This document shows positions 75 to 44,076 of a stretch of DNA of 64,000 nucleotides, piece after piece. A program made the translations under genes and the position numbers. The DNA lies in NCBI GenBank assembly GCA_944321525.1, contig CALULQ010000007.1, positions 1-64,000 of the forward strand, given 5' to 3'. The DNA comes from an uncultured Paraprevotella sp. Its GTDB lineage: Bacteria; Bacteroidota; Bacteroidia; Bacteroidales; Bacteroidaceae. The notes beneath the pieces were generated by a model. The model worked only from the letters and a program-made list of their open reading frames with translations. It ran no database searches and was not told the DNA's origin. Numbering within the stretch: the first letter of the stretch is position 1; every line of letters begins with the position of its first letter.

Positions 75-97
75 AGGATGCAACCACGGGAATCTTG

Positions 98-17503: not shown

Positions 17504-17607
17504 CGCCGTGCGGGGCCCGTCGCCGTACTTGGCGCAGAGTATTCGAGTACTTTCCGCAGAGTACTCGAATGCTTTGCGGAAAGTACTTTTTCGCACGCCG
17601 CACGGCG
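17504..17607 (+). repeat. Palindromic 22-bp-period element, copy A (104 bp)
   Basis: A 21-bp left arm starting CGCCGTGCGG (17504-17513) is complementary at its end to CCGCACGGCG at 17598-17607. The core repeats every 22 bp: GTAC starts at 17525 and 17547; AGTATTCGAGTACT starts at 17538, AGTACTCGAATGCT at 17560 and AGTACT at 17582. Same layout and exact length as copies C and D. Confidence 0.9.
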
Positions 17608-17743
17608 TCTTGCCGTCAACCGGGACCCTGTGCCGTGCCCGTCCGTCCGTCTTGTCCCTTCCACGTGCGCCTTTTTTCTCCTCTGATAGAGATAAAAGGT
17701 GTGAAAATTCTTCTTCGGAAGAAGATATATCGAAAACTATTCG

Positions 17744-17751
17744 TAATTTTG
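17744..17751 (+). promoter_or_regulatory. -7 box of gpmI
   Basis: TAATTTTG, 42 bases before the gpmI start codon. No good -33 box. A small palindrome TTCTTCGGAAGAA lies about 20 bases upstream. Confidence 0.55.
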
Positions 17752-17793
17752 CACGGATAACGTAAAGGACAATCATTTTAAATACATATTATT

Positions 17794-19314
17794 ATGGCAA
17801 AGAAAGCACTTTTGATGATTCTCGACGGTTGGGGCATTGGCGATCGCGCTAAGGACGACGCTATCTTCTGCACCCCCACGCCTTACATGGATTACCTGGC
17901 CCAGAACTACCCGCACTCGCAGCTGTTGGCTTCGGGCGAGAACGTGGGCTTGCCCGACGGGCAGATGGGCAACTCCGAGGTGGGCCACCTGAACATTGGC
18001 GCGGGCCGCATCGTGTATCAGGATTTGGTGAAAATCAACTGCGCATGCGCCGACGGGAGCATCCTGAAGAACCCCGAAATCGTGTCGGCATACGAATATG
18101 CCAAGAAGAATGGCAAGAGCGTGCACCTGATGGGGCTGACTTCCACGGGCGGCGTGCATTCTTCGTTGCACCACCTGTTCAAACTTTGTGAGATTTCCAA
18201 GGAGTACGGCATCGAGCACACCTATGTGCACTGCTTCATGGACGGCCGCGACACTGACCCGAAGAGCGGGAAAGGATTTATCGAGCAGTTGCAGGCCGAG
18301 TGCGAGAAGACCGGTTGCGTCATCGCGTCCATCATCGGGCGTTTCTATGCCATGGACCGCGACAAGCGCTGGAACCGCGTGAAGGAGGCCTACGACCTCT
18401 TGGTGAAGGGCGAAGGCAAGCAGGCCACGGACATGGTGGCGGCCATGCAGGAGTCCTATGACGAGGGTGTGACGGACGAGTTCGTGAAGGCCATCAACAA
18501 CTCCACGGTGGACGGAACCATCAAGGAGGGCGACGTGGTGATCTTCTTCAACTACCGCAACGACCGCGCCAAGGAGCTGACCGTCGTGCTCACGCAGCAG
18601 GACATGCCGGAAGAGGGGATGCAGACCATTCCGGGCCTGCAGTACTATTGCATGACGCCCTATGACGCCAGCTTCAAGGGCGTGCACATCCTTTTCCCGA
18701 AGGAAAACGTGGAGGACACGCTGGGCGAATACCTGAGCAAGAAGGGGCTGAAGCAGCTGCACACGGCCGAGACGGAGAAATATGCCCACGTGACATTCTT
18801 CTTCAACGGCGGGCGTGAGGCGCCCTTCGAAGGCGAAGACCGCATTCTGGTGCCCTCGCCCAAGGTGGCCACTTACGACCTGAAGCCGGAGATGAGCGCC
18901 TATGAGGTGAAGGACAAACTGGTGGCAGCCATCAAGGAAGACAAGTATGACTTCATCGTGGTGAACTTCGCCAACGGAGACATGGTGGGCCACACGGGCG
19001 TGTACGAAGCCATCGAGAAGGCCGTCGTGGCCGTGGACGAATGCGTGAAAGAGGTGGTGGAGACGGCCAAGGCCATGGGCGACTACGAGGTCATCATCAT
19101 CGCCGACCACGGCAATGCCGACCACGCCATCAACGAGGACGGCACGCCGAACACGGCCCACTCGCTGAACCCCGTGCCCTTCATCTATGTGACGGAAAAC
19201 AAGAACGCCAAGGTGGAGAACGGTATTCTGGCCGACGTGGCGCCTTCTATCCTGCACATCATGGGATTGCCGCAGCCGGCCGACATGACGGGCAAGGACC
19301 TGATCAAGGACTGA
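17794..19314 (+). CDS. gpmI: 2,3-bisphosphoglycerate-independent phosphoglycerate mutase
   Basis: A 506-residue glycolytic enzyme interconverting 3- and 2-phosphoglycerate, of the alkaline-phosphatase superfamily with two metal ions. The N-terminus [11 protein letters not shown] supplies metal ligand D11. The nucleophile is S61 in [15 protein letters not shown]. The C-terminal metal sites appear as [12 protein letters not shown] and [10 protein letters not shown]. Full length. A strong terminator follows the gene. Confidence 0.97.
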
Positions 19315-19338
19315 TTATGTTTCAGAAATAGGTGGACA

Positions 19339-19385
19339 GGGCAAAGTCTCCGCTTTCCCGGCGGAGGCTTTGCCCGTTTTCTTTT
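19339..19385 (+). terminator. Intrinsic terminator after gpmI
   Basis: GGGCAAAG...CTCCG pairs with CGGAG...CTTTGCCC (19339-19375), followed by GTTTTCTTTT. A classic hairpin plus U-tract. Confidence 0.85.
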
Positions 19386-19402
19386 GTGCTAAAACAGACG
19401 AG

Positions 19403-20065
19403 ATGGACGTACAGATAGAACCGAGCTGGAAGCGGCATCTGGCCGCCGAGTTTGAGAAACCATATTTTGCCAACCTGACGAATTTCGTGCGGAGGGAATA
19501 CCATGCGGCGACGTGCTATCCCCCGGGACGGCTGATATTCAACGCCTTCAACCTTTGCCCTTTCGACAAGGTGAAGGTGGTCATCATCGGGCAGGACCCC
19601 TATCACGGGCCCGGGCAGGCGCATGGCCTGTGCTTCTCCGTGAACGACGGGGTGGCCTTTCCGCCCTCGCTGCAAAATATTTTCAAGGAGATACATGACG
19701 ATTTGGGGACACCCGTGCCGCAGAGCGGCAACCTGACCCGCTGGGCGGAGCAGGGCGTGCTGCTGCTCAACGCCACCCTGACAGTGAGGGCGCACCAGGC
19801 CGGTTCGCACCAACGGCAGGGCTGGGAGGAGTTTACCGACGCGGCCATCAAGGCCCTGGCCGAGGAGCGCGAACACCTGGTGTTCATCCTTTGGGGGGCA
19901 TACGCGCAGAAAAAGGGCGCGTTCATCGACCGCAGCCGCCATCTGGTGCTTGCGTCGGCCCATCCGTCACCCTTGTCCGCCTACCACGGTTTTTTCGGCA
20001 ACAAGCATTTCAGCCTGGCCAACGCTTATTTGGAACAACACGGGGAAACCCCGATAAAATGGTGA
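19403..20065 (+). CDS. ung: Uracil-DNA glycosylase (family 1)
   Basis: Removes uracil from DNA as the first step of base-excision repair. The start at ATG 19403 gives 220 residues with the usual N-terminus ([13 protein letters not shown]); an earlier frame start lies in the terminator. The water-activating motif GQDPYH is at residues 63-68 (D65), and the uracil/DNA-binding loop [13 protein letters not shown] is near the C-terminus. It is followed 8 bp later by the DUF3109 gene. Confidence 0.96.
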
Positions 20066-20072
20066 GAAAACG

Positions 20073-20681
20073 ATGAAAGAAGACCGTATACCCATGATTC
20101 AGATTGACGATGCCATCGTCTCGATGGACTGTCTGTCGGAGAAATTCTGCTGCGACCTGGAGGCCTGCAAGGGGGCTTGCTGCGTGGAGGGCGACGCGGG
20201 AGCGCCGCTGGAACTGGACGAAGTGGCCGCGATTGAGGATTCCCTCGAGGCCGTGTGGCCCATGTTGTCGGCCTCGGCACAGGCCGTCATCGACCGCCAG
20301 GGGGTGGCCTACACCGACGAGGAGGGCGACCTGGTGACCAGCATCGTGAACGGGAAAGACTGCGTGTTCACGTGCTACGACGAGCGCGGCCATTGCTATT
20401 GTGCGCTGGAGAAGGCCTATCGCGAAGGCAAGACGCACTTCTACAAACCCCTCTCGTGCCATCTTTATCCCATCCGGCTCAAGAAAATCGGTGGCGGGGT
20501 GGCGCTGAACTACCACCGGTGGGACGTGTGCCGCATGGCCGTGGAGAAGGGGCGGCAGCTCGACCTGCCGGTCTACCGCTTCCTGAAAGAGCCGCTGGTG
20601 CGGCGTTTTGGCGAAGCTTGGTATGCCGAACTGGAGAGCGCCGTGGAGGAACTGAAGGCGCAAGGCTATCTGCCGGGCTGA
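20073..20681 (+). CDS. DUF3109 family cysteine-rich protein
   Basis: A 202-residue protein with the family pattern FCCDLEACKGACCVEGDAGAPL near the N-terminus (read in parts), then CVFTCYDERGHCYCAL and PLSCHLYPIR. The eight or more conserved cysteines suggest a metal or Fe-S site, similar to YkgJ-type zinc/iron-chelating domains. The function is not established. The start could instead be ATG 20094 (MIQIDDAIVSMD), which is closer to common family starts. Probably co-transcribed with ung. Confidence 0.88.
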   Translation: MKEDRIPMIQIDDAIVSMDCLSEKFCCDLEACKGACCVEGDAGAPLELDEVAAIEDSLEAVWPMLSASAQAVIDRQGVAYTDEEGDLVTSIVNGKDCVFTCYDERGHCYCALEKAYREGKTHFYKPLSCHLYPIRLKKIGGGVALNYHRWDVCRMAVEKGRQLDLPVYRFLKEPLVRRFGEAWYAELESAVEELKAQGYLPG

Positions 20682-20719
20682 ACAAAAGAGGGGGAGTTCC
20701 GTTTATTTTTACCGAAATG

Positions 20720-20751
20720 TTTGGCTTTTTCGGCGAATTAATATACTTTTG
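20720..20751 (+). promoter_or_regulatory. Promoter of the lipoprotein gene pair
   Basis: TTTG at 20720-20723 and TACTTTTG at 20744-20751, 20 bases apart. A small hairpin AGAGCAATGCTCT follows at about 20757-20769 in the leader. Confidence 0.8.
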
Positions 20752-20811
20752 TCTCAAGAGCAATGCTCTTAGGGAAAAATACAGTATTAACCAACCTTAA
20801 AAATGTCTGGT

Positions 20812-22101
20812 ATGAAAAAGCTGAATTATTTATGGATGATGCTCTTCGCCATGGTTATGAGCGTAGGGCTGGCGGCGTGTGAGGAAGACGATGAAAAAGT
20901 CGACGCGCCGCAGGAGTTGTTCGGGTCGTGGAACTGTTATGGGGAAACGGTCACGTTTTATTCCGACGGAAGGGCCGTGTGGACCGATTCCGATGGCGAG
21001 TCGAGCACGGCGTCTTATACGTATGACGCAGGAAGCAGAACGATTATCATCACCGCATACGGAGAGACGGTGCGGTGGCACATCGTGTCGCTGACTTCTA
21101 CCTCGCTCACCATCGAGGACGAAGATGGCTATCCGATGACCATGGAGCGCGTGGGAAGCAGCGGGACGACGGACGATGACGACGATAATGTGGGGCCTGT
21201 AGGCCCGTCGGGAGAGGACGATTCGGACTTCGACATGTCGGCCCCGTCGACCTTGCTGCCCGTGGCCGACTTGTATCCTGAGGTGAGCGGGAAATACGAG
21301 GTTTCCAATGCGGGGAGCGGCATCAGTTTCATCGAGATGCTGGGCGACGGCCATTATTTGTTGCAGAAGGCTTCGGCTTCCTACTACATGATGAAAAAGG
21401 CGCCGGGAAAGAACGGACGCTTGCGCGGCGTGATGGCATCGGCTGTGAAGCGCGACTACATCGCGGACGAAAGTCTCGTGTTTGGCGGATTCACCAAGGT
21501 GGAGGACGGTTTGTTTGAGCTGGAAGGATACGGGACACTGAAAGTGACCGGGCGCGACAGCGTGGGCAACATTGTGGACTTCGTGCTGACGGACAATTCC
21601 GGCCTGACCATACCCTTGACGGTGGACAGGCTGCCGCCCGTGGGAGGATGGACTGAAGCGACCGACCGCATCTGCCGCTCGTGGGACGTGGCGAAGGCGC
21701 GCTCTATCATGTACATGGACAGCACGAAAGTGCTCGACGCCACGTATTGGGTGGGCGACGATTATGTTGCGGTGGCCACGAACCTGTTGGGCATCGACGT
21801 GGAAGACGAGGAGCTCTTTGATACGGGCGGTGGGGCCACTACCTCGGCGAGATTCTCGCCCGACGGCACTTACATGATGTTTTTCCGTGACGGGACGATG
21901 GATGTGTCGAACTGGCGCTGGGAGGACGAGGCCAATGGCCTGATTTACGCCTACGACCTCTATAATGGAATGGAAGACGGTGTTGTGGGGCAAGCAGCCT
22001 TCTCGGACGAAAAGATGACCATCACGACCCAAGCCGGATATAGCATGGGGTATAGTTGGGTGTCGGAAACGTACATCGAGTTGTGCCGCGCGTCGAACTG
22101 A
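20812..22101 (+). CDS. Lipoprotein with N-terminal lipocalin-like domain
   Basis: A 429-residue lipoprotein; the start at ATG 20812 is chosen because its paralogue at 22159 begins identically (MKKLxYLWMMLF). The lipobox is VGLAAC, followed by EEDDE, an acidic stretch typical of surface-exposed Bacteroidota lipoproteins. Residues about 30-110 form a lipocalin-like beta domain (ELFGSWNCYGETVTFYSDG). An Asp-rich linker leads to a second unrelated half that I do not recognise. Confidence 0.8.
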   Translation: MKKLNYLWMMLFAMVMSVGLAACEEDDEKVDAPQELFGSWNCYGETVTFYSDGRAVWTDSDGESSTASYTYDAGSRTIIITAYGETVRWHIVSLTSTSLTIEDEDGYPMTMERVGSSGTTDDDDDNVGPVGPSGEDDSDFDMSAPSTLLPVADLYPEVSGKYEVSNAGSGISFIEMLGDGHYLLQKASASYYMMKKAPGKNGRLRGVMASAVKRDYIADESLVFGGFTKVEDGLFELEGYGTLKVTGRDSVGNIVDFVLTDNSGLTIPLTVDRLPPVGGWTEATDRICRSWDVAKARSIMYMDSTKVLDATYWVGDDYVAVATNLLGIDVEDEELFDTGGGATTSARFSPDGTYMMFFRDGTMDVSNWRWEDEANGLIYAYDLYNGMEDGVVGQAAFSDEKMTITTQAGYSMGYSWVSETYIELCRASN

Positions 22102-22158
22102 CAGACGCCGTTTCTCATGCTCTATTGAGCACAGATTAACTTTTAAAACAGACGTAGA

Positions 22159-22557
22159 ATGAAGAAACTGGATTATTTATGGATGATGCTCTTCGCCGTG
22201 TTCGTGAGCGTGGGGCTGGTGGCGTGCGAGGAAGACGACGAGGTGTCCGACGCGCCGCAAGAATTGTTCGGAACGTGGAACTATTATGGAGAAACGGTTA
22301 CGTTCAATCCCGATGGCACGATGACATGGACGTATTCCGACGGCAGCACGGAAACGGCGTCGTTTTCTTACGAAGCCGGGCATAGCACCATCGTCCTTAC
22401 CGCACACGGCGAGACGGACAGGTGGCGCATCGTGACGCTGAACTCAACCACGCTGACCGTGGAAGACTCGTATGGCGAGAGGATGACGATGTCGCGTGTG
22501 GGAGCAGTCCTTGATCCGGATTCTGGTGCTGAGTCTGAGAAACTCTGGGGGCGCTGA
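22159..22557 (+). CDS. Short lipoprotein, truncated paralogue of the preceding gene
   Basis: 132 residues, closely similar to the first 115 residues of the preceding lipoprotein: same signal peptide, lipobox VGLVAC, EEDDE and the lipocalin-like domain (ELFGTWNYYGETVTFNPDG). Similarity ends after MTMSRVG, where the protein stops 17 residues later. It arose by tandem duplication and either lost or never had the C-terminal half. Confidence 0.8.
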   Translation: MKKLDYLWMMLFAVFVSVGLVACEEDDEVSDAPQELFGTWNYYGETVTFNPDGTMTWTYSDGSTETASFSYEAGHSTIVLTAHGETDRWRIVTLNSTTLTVEDSYGERMTMSRVGAVLDPDSGAESEKLWGR

Positions 22558-22694
22558 GGCATTGCGGGGTAGTACTGAACGGAATGAAGCCGGTTTCGAG
22601 CGCTCGTTCCTCGCGGTTCCTCCTATTCTTTAGCGTCAGTTCCGGCGTTGTTGCCCCATTTCGTGCAACGCCTTGGGTTGAAAGGAAACAGCCT

Positions 22695-22750
22695 GATACA
22701 GCAAAGCCCCTCCGGCGGACCCTCCGCCGGAGGGGCTTTCTGCTGTATGG
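22695..22750. terminator. Bidirectional terminator between lipoprotein genes and gyrB
   Basis: Perfect 17-bp arms at 22703-22719 and 22723-22739 with a 3-base loop. After a short bulge the stem extends with ATACAGC and GCTGTAT. A-run and T-run ends suit both convergent transcripts. Confidence 0.85.
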
Positions 22751-22823
22751 TGGAAACAGATGTTGCGCTATGCTGTGTGTCGGAACGGGCAGCTGGCATT
22801 TCCGCCGTGCCCGTTTCCGCATT

Positions 22824-24824
<2,001 letters not shown>

Positions 24825-24929
24825 CGCAAAATCTGTGAGATAGCCGCATGAAAAGTGCAGATTTGCGTCCATCATTTTGCGGCGAAGCGGGCGGGGAAGC
24901 CTTTTGGGCGTGTTTTCCGGAAAGGGTAC

Positions 24930-24957
24930 AAAAAAGCCGGACTTGACGAAGTCCGGC
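24930..24957 (-). terminator. Intrinsic terminator of rpsT
   Basis: Arms GCCGGACTT (24936-24944) and AAGTCCGGC (24949-24957) with a 4-base loop. On the minus strand a six-T run follows. Confidence 0.85.
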
Positions 24958-25001
24958 CTATTTCTTCTTTTTAGCCTATGCTATTATTCTAAAACGTAGA
25001 T

Positions 25002-25256
25002 TTACGCCAGCTTGTTGATGTGAAGCGCCAATTTGGACTTCAAGTTGGCAGCCTTGTTCTTGTGAATGATGTTCACCTTGGCCAACTTGTCCAACATCTT
25101 CTGTACGCTGGGGTACATAGCGGCAGCTTCTGCCTTGTCTGTCGTAGCGCGCAACTTGCGCACGGCGTTACGCATGGTCTTCGCGTAGTATCTGTTGTGG
25201 AGTCTTCTGGTCTCCGCCTGACGTATTCTTTTTAACGCTGATTTGTGATTAGCCAT
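25002..25256 (-). CDS. rpsT: 30S ribosomal protein S20
   Basis: An 84-residue basic helical protein beginning [21 protein letters not shown], the S20 signature, and ending with the AANLKSKLA helix. It binds 16S rRNA early in 30S assembly. The gene lies 30 bp downstream of tRNA-Glu with no promoter box between, so the two are probably co-transcribed. Confidence 0.97.
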
Positions 25257-25286
25257 CTCTCTGTTTAAATAATTCGTTCAACTTAG

Positions 25287-25358
25287 TAGTCCCTAGGAGA
25301 GTCGAACTCCTCTTTAGAGAATGAAAATCTCTCGTCCTAACCGATAGACGAAGGGACC
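25287..25358 (-). tRNA. tRNA-Glu (TTC)
   Basis: A 72-nt cloverleaf on the minus strand. The acceptor stem is GGTCCCT/AGGGACT, with a G-U pair at position 1. The D arm is GTC/GAC and the anticodon stem AGAGA/TCTCT with loop TTTTCAT, giving anticodon TTC. The T arm is AGGAG/CTCCT with loop TTCGACT, and the discriminator is A. CCA is not encoded. Confidence 0.95.
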
Positions 25359-25439
25359 AACATTTTTGGAACTTCCGCTCCGTTTCCTGAGAATCTGTTT
25401 GCTGCAACTCTTTGCGGGTTGCTGTTCTCAATTGCGATG

Positions 25440-25470
25440 CAAAGGTAGTGCTTTTCTCCGAACTGGCAAA
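25440..25470 (-). promoter_or_regulatory. Promoter of tRNA-Glu and rpsT
   Basis: On the minus strand TTTG (25467-25470) and TACCTTTG (25440-25447) with a 19-base spacer, a full consensus promoter about 80 bases upstream of the tRNA. Confidence 0.8.
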
Positions 25471-25541
25471 GCTTTTCATGAAAAATCTCACAAAAAAGTA
25501 CTTTTTTTTAGGGTCAGGCCTTCTGTTACGCGCCTTTTTCT

Positions 25542-25549
25542 TAATTTTA
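25542..25549 (+). promoter_or_regulatory. Weak -7 box of recO
   Basis: TAATTTTA differs from TAnnTTTG only at the last base and ends 20 bases before the recO ATG, the spacing seen at other genes here. Confidence 0.4.
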
Positions 25550-25569
25550 GAGGTTAAAAAGGAGACTTT

Positions 25570-26295: not shown

Positions 26296-26324
26296 ATACG
26301 TGTATTGATTAATTGGGTCTGTTT

Positions 26325-27434: not shown

Positions 27435-27461
27435 GCCTTCCGGGTGCGGGGCCGGGGGCAA

Positions 27462-27543
27462 CGCCTTGCGGAGTCCGGAATTGTACTTTGCGGCAAGTAC
27501 TCGAGTACTCTCCGCAGAGTACGCTGTCGCCTTGCGGAAGCCG
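27462..27543 (+). repeat. Palindromic 22-bp-period element, copy B (82 bp)
   Basis: The left arm starts CGCCTTGCGGAG at 27462. GTAC starts at 27483, 27497, 27505 and 27519, giving the 22-bp spacing twice. The core has one complete AGTACTCGAGTACT instead of two, so the copy is 82 bp, exactly 22 bp shorter than the 104-bp copies. It lies between convergent genes. Confidence 0.9.
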
Positions 27544-27608
27544 CTTCCCGTTTTCGCCCGTTTCCCATCTGTGTTTTGCGCCGCGCGCCGTTCCTTCGCG
27601 CGGGATAC

Positions 27609-34233: not shown

Positions 34234-34261
34234 GGAATCAAGTCTTTAATTAAAAACAGGA

Positions 34262-34269: not shown

Positions 34270-34687
34270 GTGAAAAAGGTCGGTTCGGCCTTGCAAAACG
34301 GTAATAAAGAGCATTTTTACCGTTATTTCTTGTCTTGCGAGGCGGAGGAAGACCAGAAAAATGCCGATGAAATCGCGGTTTTTTGAGGTTTTCCGCCGCC
34401 GGACACTGTTCCGGATTTGTCGCGGCCGGCATGGAGGCAGTCGCAGGGGAAAGTGGGGCGGGAGATGGGCGACGTGCGGGTCGGGACTCCCTTTTGCTCT
34501 CTGCCTTGTCGCCCAAACCGCTTTCCGCCGCTTGCCGTTTGCCTGCCGGAGGTCGTTGTCTGATGCCGGGCACGCCGTCCCCAATGGCTTGATGACAGAA
34601 TCAGAACAAAATGTGGCGTCGGGGATGCCTGCATGCGACGGGATGGCGTCCCCTTTTCCGGCCCTTTCGTCGCGGGCGGCGGAAGGG

Positions 34688-34791
34688 CGGCGTGCGGAGT
34701 CTTGGATTGTACCTTGCGGAGAGTACTCGAGTACTCTGCGGCAAGTACTCGAATACTCTCCGCAAGGTACGCTGGCGCCCTCCGCATGCCG
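34688..34791 (+). repeat. Palindromic 22-bp-period element, copy C (104 bp)
   Basis: The best-preserved copy. End repeats CGGCGTGCGGAG (34688-34699) and CTCCGCATGCCG (34780-34791) are complementary with one mismatch. The core from 34709 to 34770 is a near-perfect 62-bp palindrome, with GTAC at 34709, 34723, 34731, 34745 and 34767 and ATAC at 34753, all in 22-bp register. It can form a hairpin or cruciform with a stem of about 30 bp. Confidence 0.92.
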
Positions 34792-34885
34792 TCGCGGAGC
34801 GTCGGGCAATGGCGGCCGGCGGTTATAAACAAGGTGTCGAAAACTTTTTTTATTATAATAAGGTGCGTGTCTCTTTGAAAATTCG

Positions 34886-34893: not shown

Positions 34894-34917
34894 GCCTCAC
34901 GTAAAGTGCAACCGTTG

Positions 34918-35826
34918 ATGGAAGAAACTGTTTATCATGTGCCCGTCCTGCTCCAAGCGTGCGTGGACGGTTTGGTGGCCGACCCGGCCGGAGTGTACGT
35001 GGACGCCACGTTCGGCGGAGGCGGCCATAGTCGGGAGATTGTGTCCCGGCTGTCGCCTGAGGGCCACCTGTACGGTTTTGACCAGGATGCAGACGCGGCG
35101 GCCAATGCCATTGCCGACGGGCGCTTCACCTTCGTGCGGAGCAATTTCCGCTATCTGAAGAACTGGATGCGCTATTATGGAGTGGAGCGGCTGGACGGCG
35201 TTTTGGCCGACCTCGGCGTGTCGAGCCATCATTTCGACGACGCGGAGCGAGGTTTCTCGTTCCGCTTCGACGGCAAGCTGGACATGCGGATGAACCGCCT
35301 GGCGCGCCTGACCGCCGCCGACGTGCTGAACGACTACAGCGAGGAGCGGCTGGCCGACATCTTCTACCTCTACGGCGAGCTCAAAAGTGCCCGGCGGCTG
35401 GCCGCACTGGTGGCCGCGGCGCGTGCCGTCCGGCGCATCGGCACGACCGAGGAACTGGCCGAGGTGGTGAAGCCTGCCATTGGCCGCGACCGCGAGAAGA
35501 AAGACCTGGCCAAGCTGTTCCAGGCCCTGCGCATCGAGGTGAACCAGGAGATGGATGCCCTGCGCGAGATGCTGGCGGCGGCCACCGAACTGCTCCGCCC
35601 CGGCGGGCGGCTGGTGGTCTTGTCCTATCATTCGTTGGAAGACCGCATGGTGAAGAACCTCATCAAGACGGGCAACGTGGAAGGCAAGCGCGAGGCCGAC
35701 TTCTATGGCAACGTGGACTGTCCGCTCAGGGCCGTGAATAACAAGGTGATTGTGCCCGGCGAGGAGGAGCAAAGCGAGAATCCGCGCAGCCGCAGTGCAA
35801 AATTGAGAATCGCGGAGAAGAAATAA
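34918..35826 (+). CDS. rsmH: 16S rRNA (cytosine-1402-N4)-methyltransferase RsmH (MraW)
   Basis: 302 residues from ATG 34918; a longer frame opens with TTG inside the promoter. The start HVPVLLQACVDGL is typical. The SAM-binding motif is DATFGGGGHSREI. Further family segments are DGVLADLGVSSHHFD, GFSFRFDGKLDMRMN and LSYHSLEDRMVKN. It methylates C1402 in the ribosomal P site. It is the first gene of this dcw cluster, where mraZ often precedes it. Confidence 0.96.
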   Translation: MEETVYHVPVLLQACVDGLVADPAGVYVDATFGGGGHSREIVSRLSPEGHLYGFDQDADAAANAIADGRFTFVRSNFRYLKNWMRYYGVERLDGVLADLGVSSHHFDDAERGFSFRFDGKLDMRMNRLARLTAADVLNDYSEERLADIFYLYGELKSARRLAALVAAARAVRRIGTTEELAEVVKPAIGRDREKKDLAKLFQALRIEVNQEMDALREMLAAATELLRPGGRLVVLSYHSLEDRMVKNLIKTGNVEGKREADFYGNVDCPLRAVNNKVIVPGEEEQSENPRSRSAKLRIAEKK

Positions 35827-35828
35827 AG

Positions 35829-36347
35829 ATGAAAAAGGACTTGGACAAGGAAAAGGAGGCCGGCGAAGGGGAATCCGGAGCCGGAATGCGGCCGGAAACG
35901 GCCGGGGATGCCGTGGCTGAAGGGACGCCGGACACGGCCGAAGAGCAGGAGGGCGGGGCGGAAAGCCTGTCGCCCATAAAGGCTTTCACCGAAACCGACG
36001 GGGTGGAGCAGCGCCCCAACGTGTCGCTGCGCGAAATCCTCGGCGGCGACATACTGACCGCCGGATGGCTCCGGCGGCAGATGGGGCTGATTGTGCTCTG
36101 CACGTTTTTTGCCATTGTCTACATCACAAACCGTTACTCCGCGGAGCAGGAGATGATTGAAATAGAGCGGCTGAAGACGGAACTGACGGAGATGAGATAC
36201 CGCGCGCTGACGCGCTCCAGCGAACTGACCGTGAGGACGCGCCAGAGCCAGGTGGAGAGAAGCCTGCGCGGGACGCCCGACAGCGTGCTCCAAACCCCGA
36301 AGGAGCCCCCTTTCTTGATACAAACACCAAATGAATCCGACCGATGA
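35829..36347 (+). CDS. ftsL: FtsL-like cell division protein
   Basis: 172 residues. A long acidic cytoplasmic N-terminus of about 85 residues precedes one transmembrane helix at about 85-103 (MGLIVLCTFFAIVYITN), then a short coiled-coil region (EQEMIEIERLKTELTEMR). Position between rsmH and ftsI and topology identify it, while sequence similarity across FtsL proteins is always weak. The stop overlaps the ftsI ATG. Confidence 0.85.
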   Translation: MKKDLDKEKEAGEGESGAGMRPETAGDAVAEGTPDTAEEQEGGAESLSPIKAFTETDGVEQRPNVSLREILGGDILTAGWLRRQMGLIVLCTFFAIVYITNRYSAEQEMIEIERLKTELTEMRYRALTRSSELTVRTRQSQVERSLRGTPDSVLQTPKEPPFLIQTPNESDR

Positions 36348-38512
36348 ATTTCGACAGTAAGAAGATAATGCCCCGCTTTTTCGTGGTCATCGTATTGATG
36401 AGCCTCGGCGGATTGTATATCCTGGGCAACGCGGCCTACCTGATGTTCATGGAAAGCGAATATTGGGAGGAAGTGAGCCGCAAGCTGGTGAAGGAGAACG
36501 TGCCGATTCCCGCCAAGCGCGGCAACATCCTTTCGGCCGACGGACAGATCATGGCCAGCTCGTTGCCCGAGTACAAGATTTACATGGACTACGTGGCTTC
36601 CGACAAGGACCCCGAGGTGCGGCAGGAGTTGCAGGCGTGGCGCGACAGCATGCTCGACGAGAAGCACGGCGTGCTCGACTCCATCGCCACCGGGCTGAGC
36701 AAGATTTTCCCCGACAAGAGCGCCGCCTATTTCAAGAACCGGCTCAAGAAGGGGCAGCGGCTGAAGCGCAGGAACTGGCAGGTGTATGGCCGCCGCATCT
36801 CTTATATCCAGTACAAGGAGTGCAAGAAACTGCCGCTCTTCCGCGAGTCGCCCTTCAAGGGCGGCTTCTATGCCGAAGAGTTCAACCAGAGGAAGAAACC
36901 CTACGGCTCGCTGGCCACCCGCACGCTCGGCGCACTTTTCGCCAGCAAGGACTCCGCGCGCTACGGGCTGGAGCTGTCCTACGATTCCATCCTGAGAGGA
37001 AAAGAGGGCGTGTCGCACCGCGCCAAGGTGCGCAACAAATGGCTGAGCCTCGTGGACACCCCGCCCGAGGACGGTTGCGACATTGAGACCACCATCGACG
37101 TCTCCATGCAGGACGCCGCCGAGAAGGCGCTCCTCAGGCAACTGAAGAACATCAACGGCGACGTGGGCGTGGTGGTGCTCATGGAAGTGGCCACGGGCGA
37201 CGTGAAGGCCATCGTCAACATGACGAAGTGCGCCGACGGGGAGTACTACGAAATCAAGAACAACGCCGTGTCCGACCTTATGGAGCCGGGCTCCACCTTC
37301 AAGACGGCCTCCATCATGGTGGCTCTCGAAGACGGGAAAATCACGAAAGACGACTTCATCGACACCGGCAACGGCCAGTGGGAGATGTACGGGCAGGTGA
37401 TGCGAGACCACAACTGGCGGCGTGGAGGCTACGGCCGCATCAGTGTGCCCGAATGCCTGATGTATTCCTCCAACGTCGGGGTCAGCCGCCTGATAGACAA
37501 CAACTACAAAGACCATCCGGAGCAGTTCGTCGACGGGCTTTACCGCGAGGGCGTGGGCATCCCGTTGAACCTGCCCCTCGTGGGCAGCGGCGAGCCGCGC
37601 GTGCGCCGTCCCAAGGCCGACGGCAGCAACTGGTCGAAGACGGCCTTGCCGTGGATGAGCATCGGCTACGAAGTGCAGTTGCCACCCATCGCCACGCTCA
37701 CCTTCTACAATGCCATCGCCAACGGCGGCAAGATGGTGAAGCCCAGGTTCGTGCGCGCCGTGCGGCGCAACGGCGAAATCGTGCGCGAGTTCCCCACCGA
37801 AGTCATCAGGGAGCAAATCTGCTCGCCCAAGACGTTGAAGGACATCCAGGACATCCTGGAGCTGGTGGTGAGCAAGGGACTGGGCAAGAAAGCCGGTTGC
37901 AAGAACTTCAAGGTGTCCGGCAAGACCGGCACGGCACAGGTGGCGCAGGGCGGAAGCTACCGCACCGGGCGGATGAAGTATCTGATAAGCTTCTGCGGTT
38001 ACTATCCGTCCGACCAGCCGAAATACAGTTGCATCGTGGCCATACAGAAATCCGGCCTTCCGGCTTCGGGCGGCGGGCATTGCGGGCCCGTGTTCAGTGA
38101 GATCGCCCAGAGCGTGATGGCCAAAGGCGTCTACCGCGACGTGGCCGAGGCGGCCGACTCCAACTCCGTCTTCGTCCCCGACGTGCTGGACGGCGATGTC
38201 GCTGCCGCGCGCTCCGTGCTGCAGGAACTGGACATCCCCTTCAGGCAGGACTGGAACGGGGAGGACGACGGGAAGCCCGTATGGGGCACGGCGGCCAACA
38301 ACGGTAACATGGTGGCGCTCGAAGAAGACAAGACGCTGAACGAAATCGTTCCCGACGTGAGAGGCATGGGAGCCAAGGATGCCGTCTATTTGTTGGAGTG
38401 CCGCGGGCTGAAGGTGCGCATCGAGGGCGTGGGGCACGTCGTGTCGCAAAGCCTGCCGCCCCATTCCAGATATAAGAAAGGACAGACAATTCATATCAAA
38501 CTGAAAAGGTAA
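36344..38512 (+). CDS. ftsI: Peptidoglycan D,D-transpeptidase FtsI (PBP3) with PASTA domain
   Basis: 722 residues, class B penicillin-binding protein for septal cross-linking. It has one N-terminal transmembrane helix at about 10-33. Catalytic motifs are STFK (S317), SSN (about 375-377) and KTGTA in KVSGKTGTAQVA. The C-terminal 170 residues include one clear PASTA domain (IVPDVRGMGAKDAVYLLE) and probably a second before it (VFVPDVLDGDVAAARS). PASTA domains in FtsI are normal in Bacteroidota. Confidence 0.96.
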   Translation: MNFDSKKIMPRFFVVIVLMSLGGLYILGNAAYLMFMESEYWEEVSRKLVKENVPIPAKRGNILSADGQIMASSLPEYKIYMDYVASDKDPEVRQELQAWRDSMLDEKHGVLDSIATGLSKIFPDKSAAYFKNRLKKGQRLKRRNWQVYGRRISYIQYKECKKLPLFRESPFKGGFYAEEFNQRKKPYGSLATRTLGALFASKDSARYGLELSYDSILRGKEGVSHRAKVRNKWLSLVDTPPEDGCDIETTIDVSMQDAAEKALLRQLKNINGDVGVVVLMEVATGDVKAIVNMTKCADGEYYEIKNNAVSDLMEPGSTFKTASIMVALEDGKITKDDFIDTGNGQWEMYGQVMRDHNWRRGGYGRISVPECLMYSSNVGVSRLIDNNYKDHPEQFVDGLYREGVGIPLNLPLVGSGEPRVRRPKADGSNWSKTALPWMSIGYEVQLPPIATLTFYNAIANGGKMVKPRFVRAVRRNGEIVREFPTEVIREQICSPKTLKDIQDILELVVSKGLGKKAGCKNFKVSGKTGTAQVAQGGSYRTGRMKYLISFCGYYPSDQPKYSCIVAIQKSGLPASGGGHCGPVFSEIAQSVMAKGVYRDVAEAADSNSVFVPDVLDGDVAAARSVLQELDIPFRQDWNGEDDGKPVWGTAANNGNMVALEEDKTLNEIVPDVRGMGAKDAVYLLECRGLKVRIEGVGHVVSQSLPPHSRYKKGQTIHIKLKR

Positions 38513-38515
38513 ATC

Positions 38516-39973
38516 ATGATGAAATTAGATATTCTGCTGAAAAGCGTCAGCGTCGTGCGGGCATCGGGCGACATGGACAAGGAGATTGCTGGCATCAACA
38601 TGGACTCGCGACTGGTGGCCCCGGGCGACATGTTCGTCGCCGTCAAGGGAACGCAGGCCGACGGCCATGCTTATATCGGCAAGGCGATAGAGAAGGGGGC
38701 CGTGGCTGTCGTGTGTGAGGCGTGGCCCGAAGAACCGCTGCCCGACGGCGTGGCCTGCGTGCAGGTGAAAGACTCCGAGAGCGCCGTGGGGCGCCTGGCC
38801 ACGGCGTTCTATGGCGACCCGACTTCCAAGATGGAGCTGGTGGGCGTGACCGGAACGAACGGGAAGACGACCATCGCCACCTTATTATATAATATGTTCC
38901 GCGCGCTTGGCTACAAGTGCGGCCTGTGCTCCACCGTGTGCAACTACATCGACGGCGAGCCTGTTCCCACGGAGCATACCACGCCCGACCCCGTTACCCT
39001 GAACCGTCTGTTGGGGCGGATGGCCGACGAGGGGTGCAAATACGCTTTCATGGAAGTCAGCTCGCACGCGGTGGCGCAACATCGCATTGCCGGGCTGAAG
39101 TTCGCCGGCGGCATTTTCACCAACCTCACGCGCGACCACTTGGATTACCATAAGACTTTCGAGAACTATCGGAACGCGAAGAAGGCCTTCTTCGACGGCT
39201 TGCCCAAGGGCGCTTTCGCGGTGACGAACACCGACGACAGGAACGGGATGGTGATGGTGCAGAACACGCGGGCGACGGTCAAGACCTATTCTTTGCGCGC
39301 CGCAGCCGACTTCAAGGCCAAGGTGTTGGAAGAATCGTTCGAGGGAATGTACATCGAAATCAACGGCCGCGAGGTGAGCGTGCCTTTTATCGGCCGTTTC
39401 AACGTGTCGAATCTCCTTGCGGTCTATGCCGCTGCCCTGTGTATGGGGCGGCAGCCAGAGGAAGTGCTGGTGGTGCTCAGCACACTTCATCCCGTGAACG
39501 GGCGCTTTGAGACCATCCGCTCGCGCGAAGGCGTGACGGCCATTGTGGACTACGCCCACACGCCGGACGCTTTGGTGAATGTCCTGTCCACGGTGAACGA
39601 AATCCTGAAGCACCGCGGCGAGGTCATCACCGTTTGCGGGGCCGGCGGCAACCGCGACAAGGGCAAGCGTCCGCTGATGGCGCAGGAGGCTGTGAAGAAC
39701 AGCGACCGCGTGGTCATCACGAGCGACAATCCGCGCTTCGAAGAGCCGCAGGCCATCATCGACGACATGCTGGCGGGGCTGGACAAGGCCCAGATGCGCA
39801 AGGTCGTCGCTATCGTCGACCGCCGCGAGGCCATACGCACGGCCTGCATGATGGCAAGGCCCGGCGACGTGGTGCTCGTGGCCGGCAAGGGGCACGAGGA
39901 CTATCAGGAAGTGAAGGGCGTGAAGCACCACTTCGACGACCACGAAGTGATTCGCGAAGCTTTCGGCATTTAA
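38516..39973 (+). CDS. murE: UDP-MurNAc-L-Ala-D-Glu:meso-DAP ligase MurE
   Basis: 485 residues, a cytosolic Mur ligase. The ATP-binding motif is [12 protein letters not shown], with the central YAHTPDAL and the C-terminal motif [13 protein letters not shown] is the recognised marker for meso-diaminopimelate rather than lysine, so the peptidoglycan is predicted to be DAP-type. It starts 3 bp after ftsI. Confidence 0.96.
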
Positions 39974-39988
39974 ACATCGTTTGCAGTC

Positions 39989-41254
39989 ATGTTGTATTAT
40001 CTGTTCAGATTCTTGGGAGAGTACGGAATACCCGGTTCGCACATGTGGACCTACATCTCCTTCCGTGCCTTGCTGACGCTGATGCTGTCGCTGGTCATCT
40101 CCGTGTGGTTCGGCGAGTATTTCATCCGTTGGATGAGACGGCATAACGTGAGCGAAGCCCAGCGCGACAAGTCGATAGATCCGTACGGGGTGGAAAAGAA
40201 AGGCGTACCCACGATGGGCGGCGTCATCATCATCGTGTCCATCATCGTGCCTTGCCTTCTGTTTGGCCGCCTGCGCAATATTTACATGATACTCATGCTC
40301 GCCACCACCGTGTGGTTGGGCCTGCTCGGCTTTGCGGACGATTATATCAAGATGAAAGTGAGCAAGGACGGCCTGCGGCCCATCTACAAACTGGCCGGGC
40401 AGACGTTGCTGGGCCTCATTGTGGGGCTCACGCTCTGGCTCAGCCCCGATGCCGTCATTCGCGAGAACGTGACGATGCAGCGCATGGGGAACACCGAAGT
40501 GGTGGTGCATAAGAGCGAGAAGGTGAAGTCCACCATCACCACGATTCCTTTCGTGAAAGACAACAACCTGGACTATGCCGAAATCATGAGCTTCTGCGGG
40601 AAGTATAAGACGGCGGCGGGCTGGTTCCTTTTCGTCGTGATGACCACGCTGGTGGTGGTGGCCGTTTCCAACGGTTCGAACCTGAACGACGGCATGGACG
40701 GCATGACGGCCGGCAACTCGGCCATCATCGGCGTGGCGCTGGGCGTGCTGGCCTACGTGTCGAGCCACATAGAGTTTGCCAGCTACCTGAACATCATGTA
40801 CATCCCGGGCTCGGAGGAGCTGGTGATTTTCATTTGTGCGTTCGTGGGCGCGCTGGTGGGCTTCTTGTGGTACAACGCCTACCCGGCGCAGATTTTCATG
40901 GGCGACACGGGCAGCCTGTCCATCGGGGGCATCATCGCCGTGACGGCCATCATCATCCACAAGGAACTGCTCATCCCCTTGATGTGCTTTGTGTTCCTCA
41001 TGGAGAGCCTGAGCGTCATTCTGCAGGTGAACTACGCCAAATGGGGCAACCGCAAGGGGCTGAAGCTCCGTGTGTTCAAGCGGGCGCCCATCCACGATGC
41101 CTTCCGCGTGCGGCCCGGGCAGCTGGCGCCTGACGTGAAGGTGCTCTGCAAGTGGCCCAAGGGTTGCTGGCTGGAGTCGAAGATTACGGTGCGCTTCTGG
41201 ATCATTACCATTATCCTGGCGGCCATGACGATTATTACATTAAAGATTAGATAA
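39989..41254 (+). CDS. mraY: Phospho-MurNAc-pentapeptide transferase MraY
   Basis: 421 residues with about ten transmembrane helices. It makes lipid I on the inner face of the membrane. Family motifs are KKGVPTMGG, FADDYIKM, NGSNLNDGMDGM and MGDTGSLSIGG. A Bacteroidota-type insertion of about 55 residues (about 150-205, containing ENVTMQRMGNTEVVVHKSEK) separates two helices. murF, which makes its substrate, is not in the cluster. Confidence 0.97.
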   Translation: MLYYLFRFLGEYGIPGSHMWTYISFRALLTLMLSLVISVWFGEYFIRWMRRHNVSEAQRDKSIDPYGVEKKGVPTMGGVIIIVSIIVPCLLFGRLRNIYMILMLATTVWLGLLGFADDYIKMKVSKDGLRPIYKLAGQTLLGLIVGLTLWLSPDAVIRENVTMQRMGNTEVVVHKSEKVKSTITTIPFVKDNNLDYAEIMSFCGKYKTAAGWFLFVVMTTLVVVAVSNGSNLNDGMDGMTAGNSAIIGVALGVLAYVSSHIEFASYLNIMYIPGSEELVIFICAFVGALVGFLWYNAYPAQIFMGDTGSLSIGGIIAVTAIIIHKELLIPLMCFVFLMESLSVILQVNYAKWGNRKGLKLRVFKRAPIHDAFRVRPGQLAPDVKVLCKWPKGCWLESKITVRFWIITIILAAMTIITLKIR

Positions 41255-41273
41255 GAGAAGGGAGAGACTGGTT

Positions 41274-42608
41274 ATGAGTAAAAGAATGGTGATACTTGGA
41301 GCAGCGGAGAGCGGCGTGGGCGCCGCCGTGCTGGCCCAGAAGAAAGGTTTCGACGTCTTTGTCTCCGACATGGGCAAAATCAAGCCCCGCTACGTGGAGA
41401 TGCTCGACCGTTACGGGATAGCCTGGGAAGACGGCGGCCACACGGAAGCGCTGATACTGAACGCCGACGAGGTGGTGAAGAGCCCCGGCATCCCCGAGGA
41501 CGCCCCGATGGTGTGCAAGGTGAAGGAAGCCGGCATTCCCATTATTTCGGAAATCGAGTTCGCGGGACGTTACACGAATGCCAAGATGATTTGCATCACG
41601 GGCAGCAACGGAAAGACCACCACCACCTCGCTCATCTACCATATATTCAAGAAGGCCGGCTACAACGTGGGACTGGCCGGCAACATCGGGCAGAGCCTTG
41701 CGCTGCAGGTGGCAGAGAAGAACTACGATTATTACGTGATAGAGCTGAGCAGTTTCCAACTGGACAACATGTACCGTTTCCGGGCCAACATCGCCGTGCT
41801 GCTCAACATCACGCCCGACCATCTTGACCGTTACGACAACTGCATGCAGAACTATGTGGACGCGAAGATGCGCATCCTGCAGAACCAGGAAGAGACGGAC
41901 GCCTTCGTGTATTGGAACGACGACCCCATCATACAGCGCGAATTGAAGAAATACGATATAAAGGCCAAGATGTGTCCTTTCTCCATCCTGAAGAAGGAGG
42001 GCATGATCGGTTATCTGGCCGACGGGCAGTACGTCATCGAGTATCCCACTCCGTTCAACATGGAGCAGGAGTCGTTGGCGCTGACCGGAAAGCACAACAT
42101 GTACAACTCGTTGGCCGCCGGCATCACGGCCGACCTGGCCGGCATCAAGAACGAGGTCATCCGGCAGAGCCTGAGCGACTTCGAGGGCGTGGAGCACCGC
42201 CTGGAGAAAGTGGTGCGCGTGCGCGGCGTGGACTACGTCAACGATTCCAAGGCCACGAACGTGGACGCCTGCTGGTATGCGCTGGAGAGCATGAAGACGC
42301 CCACGGTGTTGATTCTGGGCGGAAAGGACAAGGGCAACGACTATAATGCCATCGCCGAACTGGTGCGCAAGAAGTGCGTGGGCCTGGTGTTCCTGGGAGC
42401 CGACAACAGCAAGCTGCACGCCTTTTTCGACTCTTTCGGCCTTCCGATTGCCGACACGCACAGCATGAAAGACTGCGTGGAGGCCTGCTACAAGATGGCC
42501 CGTCCGGGCGACACGGTGCTGCTCAGTCCTTGTTGTGCCAGCTTCGACCTGTTCAAGAACATGGAAGACCGCGGCGACCAGTTCAAAGCGTTAGTGAGGG
42601 CATTATAA
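41274..42608 (+). CDS. murD: UDP-MurNAc-L-alanine:D-glutamate ligase MurD
   Basis: 444 residues. N-terminal UDP-binding domain (MVILGAAESGVGAAVLAQ), ATP motif TGSNGKTTTTSL, DHLDRY of the central domain and NDSKATNVDA of the C-terminal domain. Adds D-Glu to UDP-MurNAc-L-Ala. It lies 19 bp after mraY. Confidence 0.97.
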   Translation: MSKRMVILGAAESGVGAAVLAQKKGFDVFVSDMGKIKPRYVEMLDRYGIAWEDGGHTEALILNADEVVKSPGIPEDAPMVCKVKEAGIPIISEIEFAGRYTNAKMICITGSNGKTTTTSLIYHIFKKAGYNVGLAGNIGQSLALQVAEKNYDYYVIELSSFQLDNMYRFRANIAVLLNITPDHLDRYDNCMQNYVDAKMRILQNQEETDAFVYWNDDPIIQRELKKYDIKAKMCPFSILKKEGMIGYLADGQYVIEYPTPFNMEQESLALTGKHNMYNSLAAGITADLAGIKNEVIRQSLSDFEGVEHRLEKVVRVRGVDYVNDSKATNVDACWYALESMKTPTVLILGGKDKGNDYNAIAELVRKKCVGLVFLGADNSKLHAFFDSFGLPIADTHSMKDCVEACYKMARPGDTVLLSPCCASFDLFKNMEDRGDQFKALVRAL

Positions 42609-42629
42609 ACAAAGGAAAGGTAAGCGAAA

Positions 42630-43877
42630 ATGGTCACACCTGCAAAAGTTTTGAAGAAGTGGAGCTTGTTCGAGGGCGACAAGGTCATCTGGATGATCCT
42701 GTTCTTCCTGGCCCTGATTTCCATCATTGAAGTCTACAGCGCGTCGAGCAACATGAGCTACAAGACGGGCTACTACTGGAAACCCATCCTCCAGCATGGC
42801 GGCTGTTTCCTTTTGGGCGGGGTCGCCACGATTCTGGTGCACAAGATACCGTGCCGTTATTTCAAGCTCATACCCGTGTTCGGCTTGCCCCTCTCGGTGT
42901 TCATGCTCGTGCTGGTCATGTTCATGCCCAAGCTGAACAACGCGAGCCGCTGGCTGTGGGGCTTCCAGCCTTCCGAGTTCGGCAAGGCCGTGCTGGTGGC
43001 CACGGTGGCCCTGATTCTGGCCAGCATGCGCGACGAGGTGGGCGCGCAGCGCCGCGCCTTCAAGTGGATTTTGGGCGTGTCGGTGGTGATTTGCGGGTTG
43101 ATTGTGCCCGAGAACTTCTCCACGGCCGGCCTGGCGTTCCTGGTTGTCCTGCTCATGATGTTCGTGGGCGGCATTCCCTGGAAGCAGCTCGGCAGCCTGG
43201 TGGGCATCATCGTGATAGCGGGCGCCTGCTTGTTCACCTTCTTCCGTTTTGCCCCCGACTCCACGCTGTCCACCCTGAGCGAATGCCCGGGACTGCACCG
43301 CCTGCCCACGTGGGCCAACCGTGTGCGTGGCCATGGGGATATGCCGGAAAGCGCGGCGGAGTACGACATCACGAAGAATCCCCAGGTGACGCATGCCCGT
43401 ATTGCCATAGCCACGTGCAACGTCATCGGCCGCGGTCCGGGTAACTCCGTGGAGCGCGACTTCCTGCCGCAGTCGTTTTCCGACTTCATCTACGCCATCG
43501 TCATCGAGGAACTGGGATTGGGAGGCGGCGCGTTTGTCATGTTCCTTTATATCGTGCTGCTCTTCCGGTCGGCGCGCATTGCGAGCCGGTGCGAGCGCAA
43601 TTTCCCGGCATTCCTGGTGATGGGGCTCTCGCTCATGATGGTCACGCAGGCCATGGTGAACATGGCGGTGGCCGTCGGCGTGTTTCCCGTCACGGGCCAG
43701 CCGCTCCCGCTCATCAGCAAGGGTGGCACGTCCATCCTCATCAACTGTGTCTATTTGGGTGTGATATTGAGCGTTAGCCGTTCGGCCAAGCAGAAGTCGC
43801 AGACCGAAGACGACGGCATCGGTGCCGACGGGATTCCCGCGGCGCCCTTGGCGAAGCGCGATGCCGGCGAGGCATAA
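42630..43877 (+). CDS. ftsW: Cell division glycosyltransferase FtsW
   Basis: 415 residues, SEDS-family polytopic membrane protein with about ten helices. It polymerises septal glycan together with FtsI. Landmarks: IEVYSASSNMSYKTG near the N-terminus, QPSEFGKAVLV, the large extracytoplasmic loop with VTHARIAIATCNVIGRGPGNS and DFIYAIVIEELG, and TGQPLPLISKGGTS near the end. The C-terminal 25 residues are charged. It is the last gene before the gap holding element D. Confidence 0.96.
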   Translation: MVTPAKVLKKWSLFEGDKVIWMILFFLALISIIEVYSASSNMSYKTGYYWKPILQHGGCFLLGGVATILVHKIPCRYFKLIPVFGLPLSVFMLVLVMFMPKLNNASRWLWGFQPSEFGKAVLVATVALILASMRDEVGAQRRAFKWILGVSVVICGLIVPENFSTAGLAFLVVLLMMFVGGIPWKQLGSLVGIIVIAGACLFTFFRFAPDSTLSTLSECPGLHRLPTWANRVRGHGDMPESAAEYDITKNPQVTHARIAIATCNVIGRGPGNSVERDFLPQSFSDFIYAIVIEELGLGGGAFVMFLYIVLLFRSARIASRCERNFPAFLVMGLSLMMVTQAMVNMAVAVGVFPVTGQPLPLISKGGTSILINCVYLGVILSVSRSAKQKSQTEDDGIGADGIPAAPLAKRDAGEA

Positions 43878-43972
43878 TCGTAATGCAATGCATTTTTCCT
43901 GAATTTTCTCCGGCGTAGCGGCCCGGACGGGTGGAGGCATGGGCGTGTCCGTCCTTGCGCGACATCCTGCGG

Positions 43973-44076
43973 CGCTGTGCGGAGTCCGTCAGCGTACTCT
44001 GCGGAGAGTACTCGAGTACTTGCCGCAGAGTACTCGAATACTTTGCGGCAAGCGCTTTTCAGGACGGCGGCCAGCC
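43973..44076 (+). repeat. Palindromic 22-bp-period element, copy D (104 bp)
   Basis: The left arm starts CGCTGTGCGGAG. GTAC starts at 43994, 44008, 44016 and 44030, with ATAC at 44038 and GCGC at 44052, all in the 22-bp register of copy C. The right arm has diverged more than in A and C. The asymmetry mark (CGAG in the first unit, CGAA in the second) matches A and C, so all three have the same orientation. Confidence 0.9.

What the first reader, a model, noticed from the sequence alone, without database searches (positions are those of the whole stretch)
17504..44076. A family of 104-bp intergenic palindromic elements built from 22-bp units
Seen directly: four intact copies (17504-17607, 27462-27543, 34688-34791, 43973-44076) share a 21-bp left arm beginning near CGCCGTGCGGAG, a core of 22-bp units centred on AGTACTCGAGTACT joined by GCGG/CCGC, and a 21-bp right arm. 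Three have exactly the same total length. All are intergenic and the three long ones share one orientation. They are not CRISPR (no spacers), not a known IS and not simple terminators (no T-run). Inference: a REP- or MITE-like family, a structural nucleoid element, or a tandem operator read by one protein on one face of the helix.
Basis: partly seen in the sequence, partly recalled or inferred. Interest (0 to 1): 0.85.

Follow-up and report, generated by a model that had tools for sequence, protein, structure and literature searches.

The report
Evenly spaced 22-bp palindrome chromosome markers
This gut bacterium and two sister species carry short DNA elements between genes, built from repeated 22-base units and set at strikingly regular distances (on average 12 and 20 thousand bases); they are likely docking sites for a protein that would help organise the chromosome, although no such protein has been found.

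Summary
The four window copies are real, intergenic, and 82 or 104 bp long (exactly one 22-bp unit apart). In 1.57 Mb of this genome (45%) there are 122 copies; 120 lie mostly outside genes, 116 of 121 scorable copies have both ends, and no convincing solitary half was found. They are far more evenly spaced than chance (108 spacings, mean 12.0 kb, CV 0.54 against 0.86-0.92, none under 3.65 kb); contigs fetched later repeat this. 10-kb windows under 50% GC nearly lack them (1 in 12 windows). Two sister species hold a family with the same 22-bp phase and regular spacing (mean 20 kb, CV 0.39), yet profiles of neither family hit the other. Their elements share gene gaps with this genome more often than chance (3 of 4 strictly comparable gaps), only suggestively once gap length is matched; one further copy is displaced. 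No Y1 (REP-type) transposase was found here, and linker pairing argues against hairpin selection. Best reading: a dialect-forming, protein-bound chromosome-spacing site; function and protein are inferred. Main rival: a mobile palindrome with target immunity.

The parts
17504..17607 (-). two-core element (104 bp; profile match 17498-17626) in the gap before the phosphoglycerate-mutase-type gene at 17815
   Evidence: the same gap holds an element in G012 and G014
27462..27543 (+). one-core element (82 bp; profile match 27442-27569) between convergent genes
34688..34791 (+). two-core element (104 bp; profile match 34647-34827) upstream of the mraW-type methylase gene at 34918
   Evidence: G012 and G014 have one about 4 kb from the orthologous gene instead
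43973..44076 (-). two-core element (104 bp; profile match 43937-44118) between ftsW-type and murG-type genes
   Evidence: the same gap holds a 22-bp-phased element in G012 and G014 and a 23-bp-phased one in G009
34722..34735 (.). example core palindrome AGTACTCGAGTACT
34736..34743 (.). example linker CTGCGGCA between two cores, holding the TGCGG box

Best explanation
The elements are regularly spaced, intergenic arrays of 22-bp-phased boxes that are likely bound by a sequence-specific DNA-binding protein and would mark off chromosome domains of about 10-20 kb. Shown: 22-bp phasing, intergenic placement, regular spacing in two families whose profiles do not hit each other, near absence from windows under 50% GC, and a shared TCTGCGGCAA box. 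Shown on small numbers: shared gene gaps between species. Inferred: one protein, or fast co-evolving versions of it, reads the TGCGG boxes and the palindromes on one face of the helix (22 bp is about two turns); the number of units sets site strength; the sites act in chromosome organisation (supercoil domain, nucleoid folding or division-related occlusion); and each species has drifted to its own dialect while keeping phase, spacing and part of the positions.
For: Spacing in G000: 122 elements in 1,572,739 b, 108 spacings, mean 12.0 kb, CV 0.542, minimum 3,655 bp; contigs C8-C14, fetched later and not used to build the profile, give 43 spacings with CV 0.588 and none under 3 kb. Four nulls that redraw intergenic gaps give CV 0.86-0.92, and 0 of 2000 draws each is as regular; pairs under 3 kb 0 against 16.5-21.7 expected, pairs at 3-6 kb 8 against 25-26. 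Leaving out intervals under 53% GC: 100 spacings, CV 0.438. 10-kb windows under 50% GC hold 1 element in 12 windows; the rest hold 114 in 138. Copies: 116 of 121 scorable ones have both ends above the 99th percentile of random 46-mers; half-element profiles give 11 hits outside known copies, all weak (E 0.6-4.7). 2 of 122 overlap a predicted gene by more than half. Linkers pair less than shuffled linkers, which fits directional boxes better than hairpins. G012 and G014: 34 elements in 729,250 b (20 and 14), 0 of 34 in genes, reversed control 0; 23 spacings, CV 0.391 against 0.84-0.89, 0 of 5000 in each of three nulls; lag-22 self-identity 0.491 (121 G000 copies) and 0.471 (30 copies) against means of 0.26 over lags 5-59. 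Neither family's profile hits the other at E<=1e-3. TCTGCGGCAA exact: G000 84 inside, 10 outside; G012/G014 5 inside 5.8 kb, 2 outside in 723 kb. Shared gaps: 3 of 4 unique gaps against 6 of 88 gaps without an element in the relative, p=0.0025; G001 2 of the 2 loci mappable by both flanks.
Against: No binding protein was identified and no expression, ChIP or Hi-C data were available. With gap length matched, the shared-gap excess is only suggestive (p 0.06-0.22). One G012/G014 element lies in a gap that is empty in G000, and two of the four window elements have no partner in the same gap there. In the ftsW-murG gap 14 of 18 genus genomes show no clear phased element (9 of these have gaps under 100 bp; 5 have gaps of 231-742 bp). 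Copy number is very uneven: other genus members show 0-15 matches to the GTACT pattern, odd for a housekeeping site unless dialects hide them. Between G012 and G014 the elements do not uniformly change faster than their flanks. Not every long empty interval is low in GC. About 55% of the genome was not examined base by base; the sample is the largest contigs. The genes come from a home-made caller. PMC1939737 itself doubts that uptake sequences are even enough for a compaction role, so even spacing alone does not prove one.
Confidence: 0.45

Rival explanations
1. A non-autonomous mobile palindrome (REP- or MITE-like) that spread by transposition with target immunity, so that copies rarely land within about 6 kb of each other.
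For: Copy number differs greatly between species of one genus. The elements at 27462 and 34688 have no partner in the same gap of G012 and G014. Its ends differ and it can be oriented, 61 '+' and 60 '-' of 121, 5 of them by under 3 bits. An exclusion zone is what immunity would give.
Against: No Y1 transposase match in G000; the RAYT-like genes inspected in relatives have no such array beside them. No convincing solitary ends in 1.57 Mb. Windows under 50% GC are nearly empty, and one low-GC interval holds an integrase gene. Some positions are shared between species whose element profiles do not match. Other transposase kinds were not excluded: only PF01797 and PF09299 were searched, and the latter control did not ring.
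Confidence: 0.3
2. A DNA-uptake or self-recognition sequence kept by biased transformation, with species dialects.
For: Even spacing, species dialects and near absence from low-GC windows; even spacing of Haemophilus uptake sequences is reported as Karlin's result in PMC1939737 (passages seen).
Against: Roughly 130-150 bp with several phased boxes and one per 12-20 kb, against an average uptake-sequence spacing of about 1 kb (PMC7811141, passages seen); rarely in genes (2 of 122 and 0 of 34), whereas 65% of H. influenzae sites are in reading frames. Competence was not tested.
Confidence: 0.1
3. An RNA-level element: hairpins that end or protect transcripts.
For: Tandem palindromes; convergent gaps are moderately favoured (36 of 118 copies, against 32 of 222 gaps of at least 130 bp in the first 844 kb).
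Against: 25 of 118 copies lie between divergent genes; orientation is random against genes (16 same, 14 opposite); no T-run follows the window copies; linker pairing is below shuffled; no Rfam match at the window elements.
Confidence: 0.07

Closest known systems
REP / BIME / REPIN palindromes (GTAG and CGTC superfamilies, PMC3733652: passages and section 6 seen)
   Same: Short dispersed intergenic palindromes in high copy; CGTC REPs have 8-9 bp stems and 4-5 nt loops and no dedicated transposase
   Different: Fixed 22-bp phase with 2-3 units, regular spacing, partly shared positions, linkers not under pairing selection in G000; no tag-stem-tail unit was identified (not tested formally)
BrickBuilt MITE of Porphyromonas gingivalis (PMC4596501: abstract start and passages seen)
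   Same: Bacteroidales; intergenic; leader + tandem 23-nt repeats + tail; unit number varies
   Different: 19 copies, 84-991 nt, terminal inverted repeats nearly those of IS elements, copies without leader or tail exist; the word stem 'palindrom' does not occur in its text
Chromosome-wide sites such as SlmA sites (GTGAGTACTCAC, PMC3116907: passages seen)
   Same: Dispersed palindromes read by one protein; by coincidence or not, also centred on AGTACT
   Different: 50 single 12-bp sites in E. coli, mainly in coding regions; here intergenic multi-unit arrays, about 1 per 12 kb
DNA uptake sequences of Haemophilus and Neisseria (PMC1939737, PMC7811141: passages seen)
   Same: Even spacing (as reported for Haemophilus) and species dialects
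   Different: Short single motifs, about 1 per kb, many inside genes

Membership tests
RAYT-mobilised REP/REPIN | a Y1 (RAYT) transposase in the genome | tested here: not met
   PF01797: 0 matches in G000; alignment A2: none at E<=1 in G000 and 11 other array-bearing genomes, weak partial hits in 2 more; some of these genomes are incomplete
RAYT-mobilised REP/REPIN | RAYT genes flanked by the same palindrome | tested here: not met
   flanks of 9 RAYT-like genes printed: no AGTACT array; one single core match at <=1 mismatch lies inside the L214 gene; several have CTCGGCG-type palindromes
REP (GTAG/CGTC) | stem-loop with conserved pairing | tested here: not met
   in G000 local linker pairing is below shuffled, and whole-element pairing of linkers is not above shuffled; in other genera stems look kept by eye (not counted)
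REP (general) | high-copy, intergenic, palindromic | tested here: met
MITE (BrickBuilt-like) | terminal inverted repeats shared with an IS element | tested here: inconclusive
   no convincing solitary ends in 1.57 Mb; IS elements were not catalogued
MITE (BrickBuilt-like) | target-site duplications and empty sites | not tested
   no same-species strain was available
chromosome-organising protein-bound site | regular chromosome-wide distribution | tested here: met
   (45% of G000, largest contigs)
chromosome-organising protein-bound site | specific binding protein and effect on chromosome structure | not testable with these tools
   needs pull-down, ChIP or Hi-C
DNA uptake sequence | preferential uptake of marked DNA | not testable with these tools
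   needs a transformation assay

The most novel reading that the evidence does not exclude
A ruler-like chromosome system of Paraprevotella-type bacteria: multi-unit, helically phased docking sites every 10-20 kb that keep their spacing, 22-bp phase and many of their positions while the site sequence and its reader protein turn over together between species, forming chromosome-wide DNA dialects.
Probability: 0.35. Interest if true: 0.93.

Novelty: new variant of a known kind. Interest (0 to 1): 0.8.

Why it matters
Regular spacing along a chromosome is unusual for a dispersed repeat, and no element with this anatomy turned up in the library searched (listings). If protein-bound, the sites would give a direct handle on what sets 10-kb-scale chromosome domains, and their species dialects would show a chromosome-wide site and its reader evolving together. 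If mobile instead, the spacing would reveal target immunity in a roughly 100-bp element without a known transposase.

Tried and rejected
RAYT hypothesis: a family of about 340-aa Y1 proteins with an extra C-terminal domain (alignment A2) occurs in 91 of 301 family genomes. By my own count from the listings, 20 of 38 genomes with at least two array matches on each strand have it, against 71 of the other 263, so it looked like a partner. It is not found in G000 and many other array-bearing genomes, and the genes inspected have other palindromes or none beside them: rejected for this element.

Mu/Tn7-type immunity: PF09299 gave no hit in G000, but the control genomes did not ring either, so it is uninformative.

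Hairpin selection: rejected for G000 (257 of 293 linkers used, 36 dropped for unusual ends or loops). In g15 species two element pairs at matching loci differ mainly in the four-base centres of the units, by eye; not counted.

Selection against nearby direct repeats: adjacent copies are same-oriented in 60 and opposite in 47 pairs with equal mean distance: no support. The first orientation scoring was faulty and was replaced. In one search three of four tried G012/G014 pairs aligned; the fourth (48785/82351) did not and was dropped. One of 34 G012/G014 elements (single seed hit) was dropped from the spacing test, and three G014 contigs under 2 kb (L312, L314, L316) from the set. In one search, L195 was not counted because one flank matched at 28% identity only.

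Full report
Observation. Cores AGTACTCGAGTACT inside a copy are exactly 22 bp apart, and the 82-bp copy is the 104-bp copy minus one unit. The core is far above chance in the window and in the genome (331 against 5 in the reversed control).

Source. The genome (G000, 3.50 Mb, 79 contigs) belongs to a genus in which one record is named Paraprevotella sp.: L056 shows the same printed gap sequence as G015 (L253). The genus name is thus an inference from one record.

Anatomy. Among 121 orientable copies in 1.57 Mb, 70 have one core and 51 have two. 121 of the 122 profile matches contain the core with at most one mismatch, and 116 of 121 copies have both ends above the 99th percentile of random sequence. 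Linkers are 10-mers such as TTGCCGCAGA (50) and its reverse complement TCTGCGGCAA (34) of 293; their inner positions pair less often than when shuffled (0.475 against 0.600; 0.739 against 0.773), and pairing of the first with the last linker across the whole element is not above shuffled. That argues for directional boxes on double-stranded DNA rather than hairpins. 120 of 122 copies lie mostly outside predicted genes, in all gene orientations: 36 convergent, 25 divergent, 57 co-directional of 118. Half-element profiles found 11 weak hits outside known copies and no convincing relic.

Spacing. This was not in the finding and is the main result. In the first 844 kb, CV is 0.51 with the shortest of 55 spacings 3,667 bp. 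Later-fetched contigs repeat it. Redrawing positions among intergenic gaps never reaches it, under four kinds of gap choice. The two longest inner empty intervals (43.7 and 40.8 kb) are low in GC (0.49, 0.51), but several of 22-28 kb are not; length and GC correlate at -0.39. Of nine proteins tested from these two, the first interval has a phage-type integrase, the second two glycosyltransferases; three proteins had no match. 10-kb windows under 50% GC hold 1 element in 12 windows; the other 138 hold 114.

Relatives. The looser pattern GTACTnnAGTAC-N10-GTACT occurs in 53 of 301 family genomes, with reversed controls of 0-4 per genome; G000 has 296 forward matches, the others 47 or fewer on either strand. 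In other genera the arrays are, by eye, mostly three 20-nt units with 2-nt spacers. Two same-genus species (G012, G014) have 0 matches to it but hold another family: units such as TTCGGCTGAGATTGAAAAATCG, with the same 22-bp period (lag-22 self-identity 0.471 against a mean of 0.255). 33 of its 34 copies (one with a single seed hit dropped) give 23 spacings, mean 20.0 kb, CV 0.391, minimum 8.9 kb; 0 of 5000 redraws is as regular under each of three nulls. The profiles of the two families do not hit each other, but the box TCTGCGGCAA is concentrated in both.

Positions. Of 92 unique gene gaps comparable between G000 and G012/G014, 4 have an element in the relative and 3 of these have one in G000, against 6 of 88 (p=0.0025); matching for gap length leaves p 0.06-0.22. 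One further relative element, not counted there, sits in a gap that is empty in G000, where the window elements at 27462 and 34688 lie in nearby gaps instead. Of 12 G001/G004 loci with arrays, 2 (L187, L188) map by both flanks to one G000 place, and both have an element there; L195 maps with only 28% identity on one side and has none; L157 maps on one side to the gene beside a G000 element and on the other elsewhere; 8 could not be mapped on both sides, G000 being held to 45%. In the ftsW-murG gap (families), G000, G012 and G014 have 22-bp-phased elements and G009 a 23-bp-phased one of yet another sequence, found at 14 places in that genome. The other 14 of 18 genomes show no clear phased element there: 9 have gaps under 100 bp, and 5 have longer gaps with weak top lags of 20-34. 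Between G012 and G014 three aligned element pairs have 73, 88 and 85% identity inside the element against 87, 83 and 89% in the flanks; one pair differs by an exact 22-bp unit.

Mechanism. Regular spacing, copies with both ends, avoidance of low-GC windows and partly shared positions under unlike sequence favour a host site over a decaying mobile repeat. The 22-bp phase and directional boxes favour reading by a protein on one face of DNA. That the site organises the chromosome is inference. PMC1939737 reports that Karlin read the even spacing of uptake sequences as a sign of replication, repair or compaction roles, but itself finds them not even enough for compaction (passages). The mobile rival needs target immunity and an unseen transposase.

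Literature. The searches gave no description in their listings or in the passages seen; two of them returned no paper, and one search listed only 10 of 4,621. Passages were seen of PMC8040213, PMC4596501, PMC3733652 (section 6), PMC6006769, PMC1939737, PMC3116907 and PMC7811141; PMC5771137 was seen in listings only. PMC8040213 reports 250 palindromic RNA candidates of human microbiomes, 20 of them not terminator-like, some in Bacteroidetes; their sequences are in supplements that could not be opened, so an overlap is not excluded.

Noticed in passing
L206, L208-L215; family-wide: A RAYT-like protein family of about 340 aa (MPDHxH motif, tyrosine, extra C-terminal domain) in 91 of 301 Bacteroidaceae-type genomes, some genes with CTCGGCGGGAnAACGCCGAG-like palindromes beside them
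   Followed up: partly
L255; G009: A 23-bp-phased palindromic family ACGATTTATAATCGT at 14 places in G009, one in the ftsW-murG gap
   Followed up: partly
L201/L203 and L169/L202: Elements at matching loci in different species of genus g15 differ mainly in the four-base centres of the units (by eye)
   Followed up: no
L179-L184 (G253): Three-unit arrays whose outer unit centres are mostly TTCG or CGAA (by eye)
   Followed up: no
L248:2239-2280: A contig listed as viral carries a multi-unit array of the same design
   Followed up: no
G000:C9 14582-58259 (L274-L276): Low-GC stretch with a phage-type integrase, free of elements
   Followed up: partly
G000:C3 near 89107 and 102069 (L037, L038): Two nearly identical element copies with matching flanks, a possible local duplication (by eye)
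   Followed up: no
window 1-171: Two tRNA genes with the same Rfam score, 23 bp apart, at the window start
   Followed up: no
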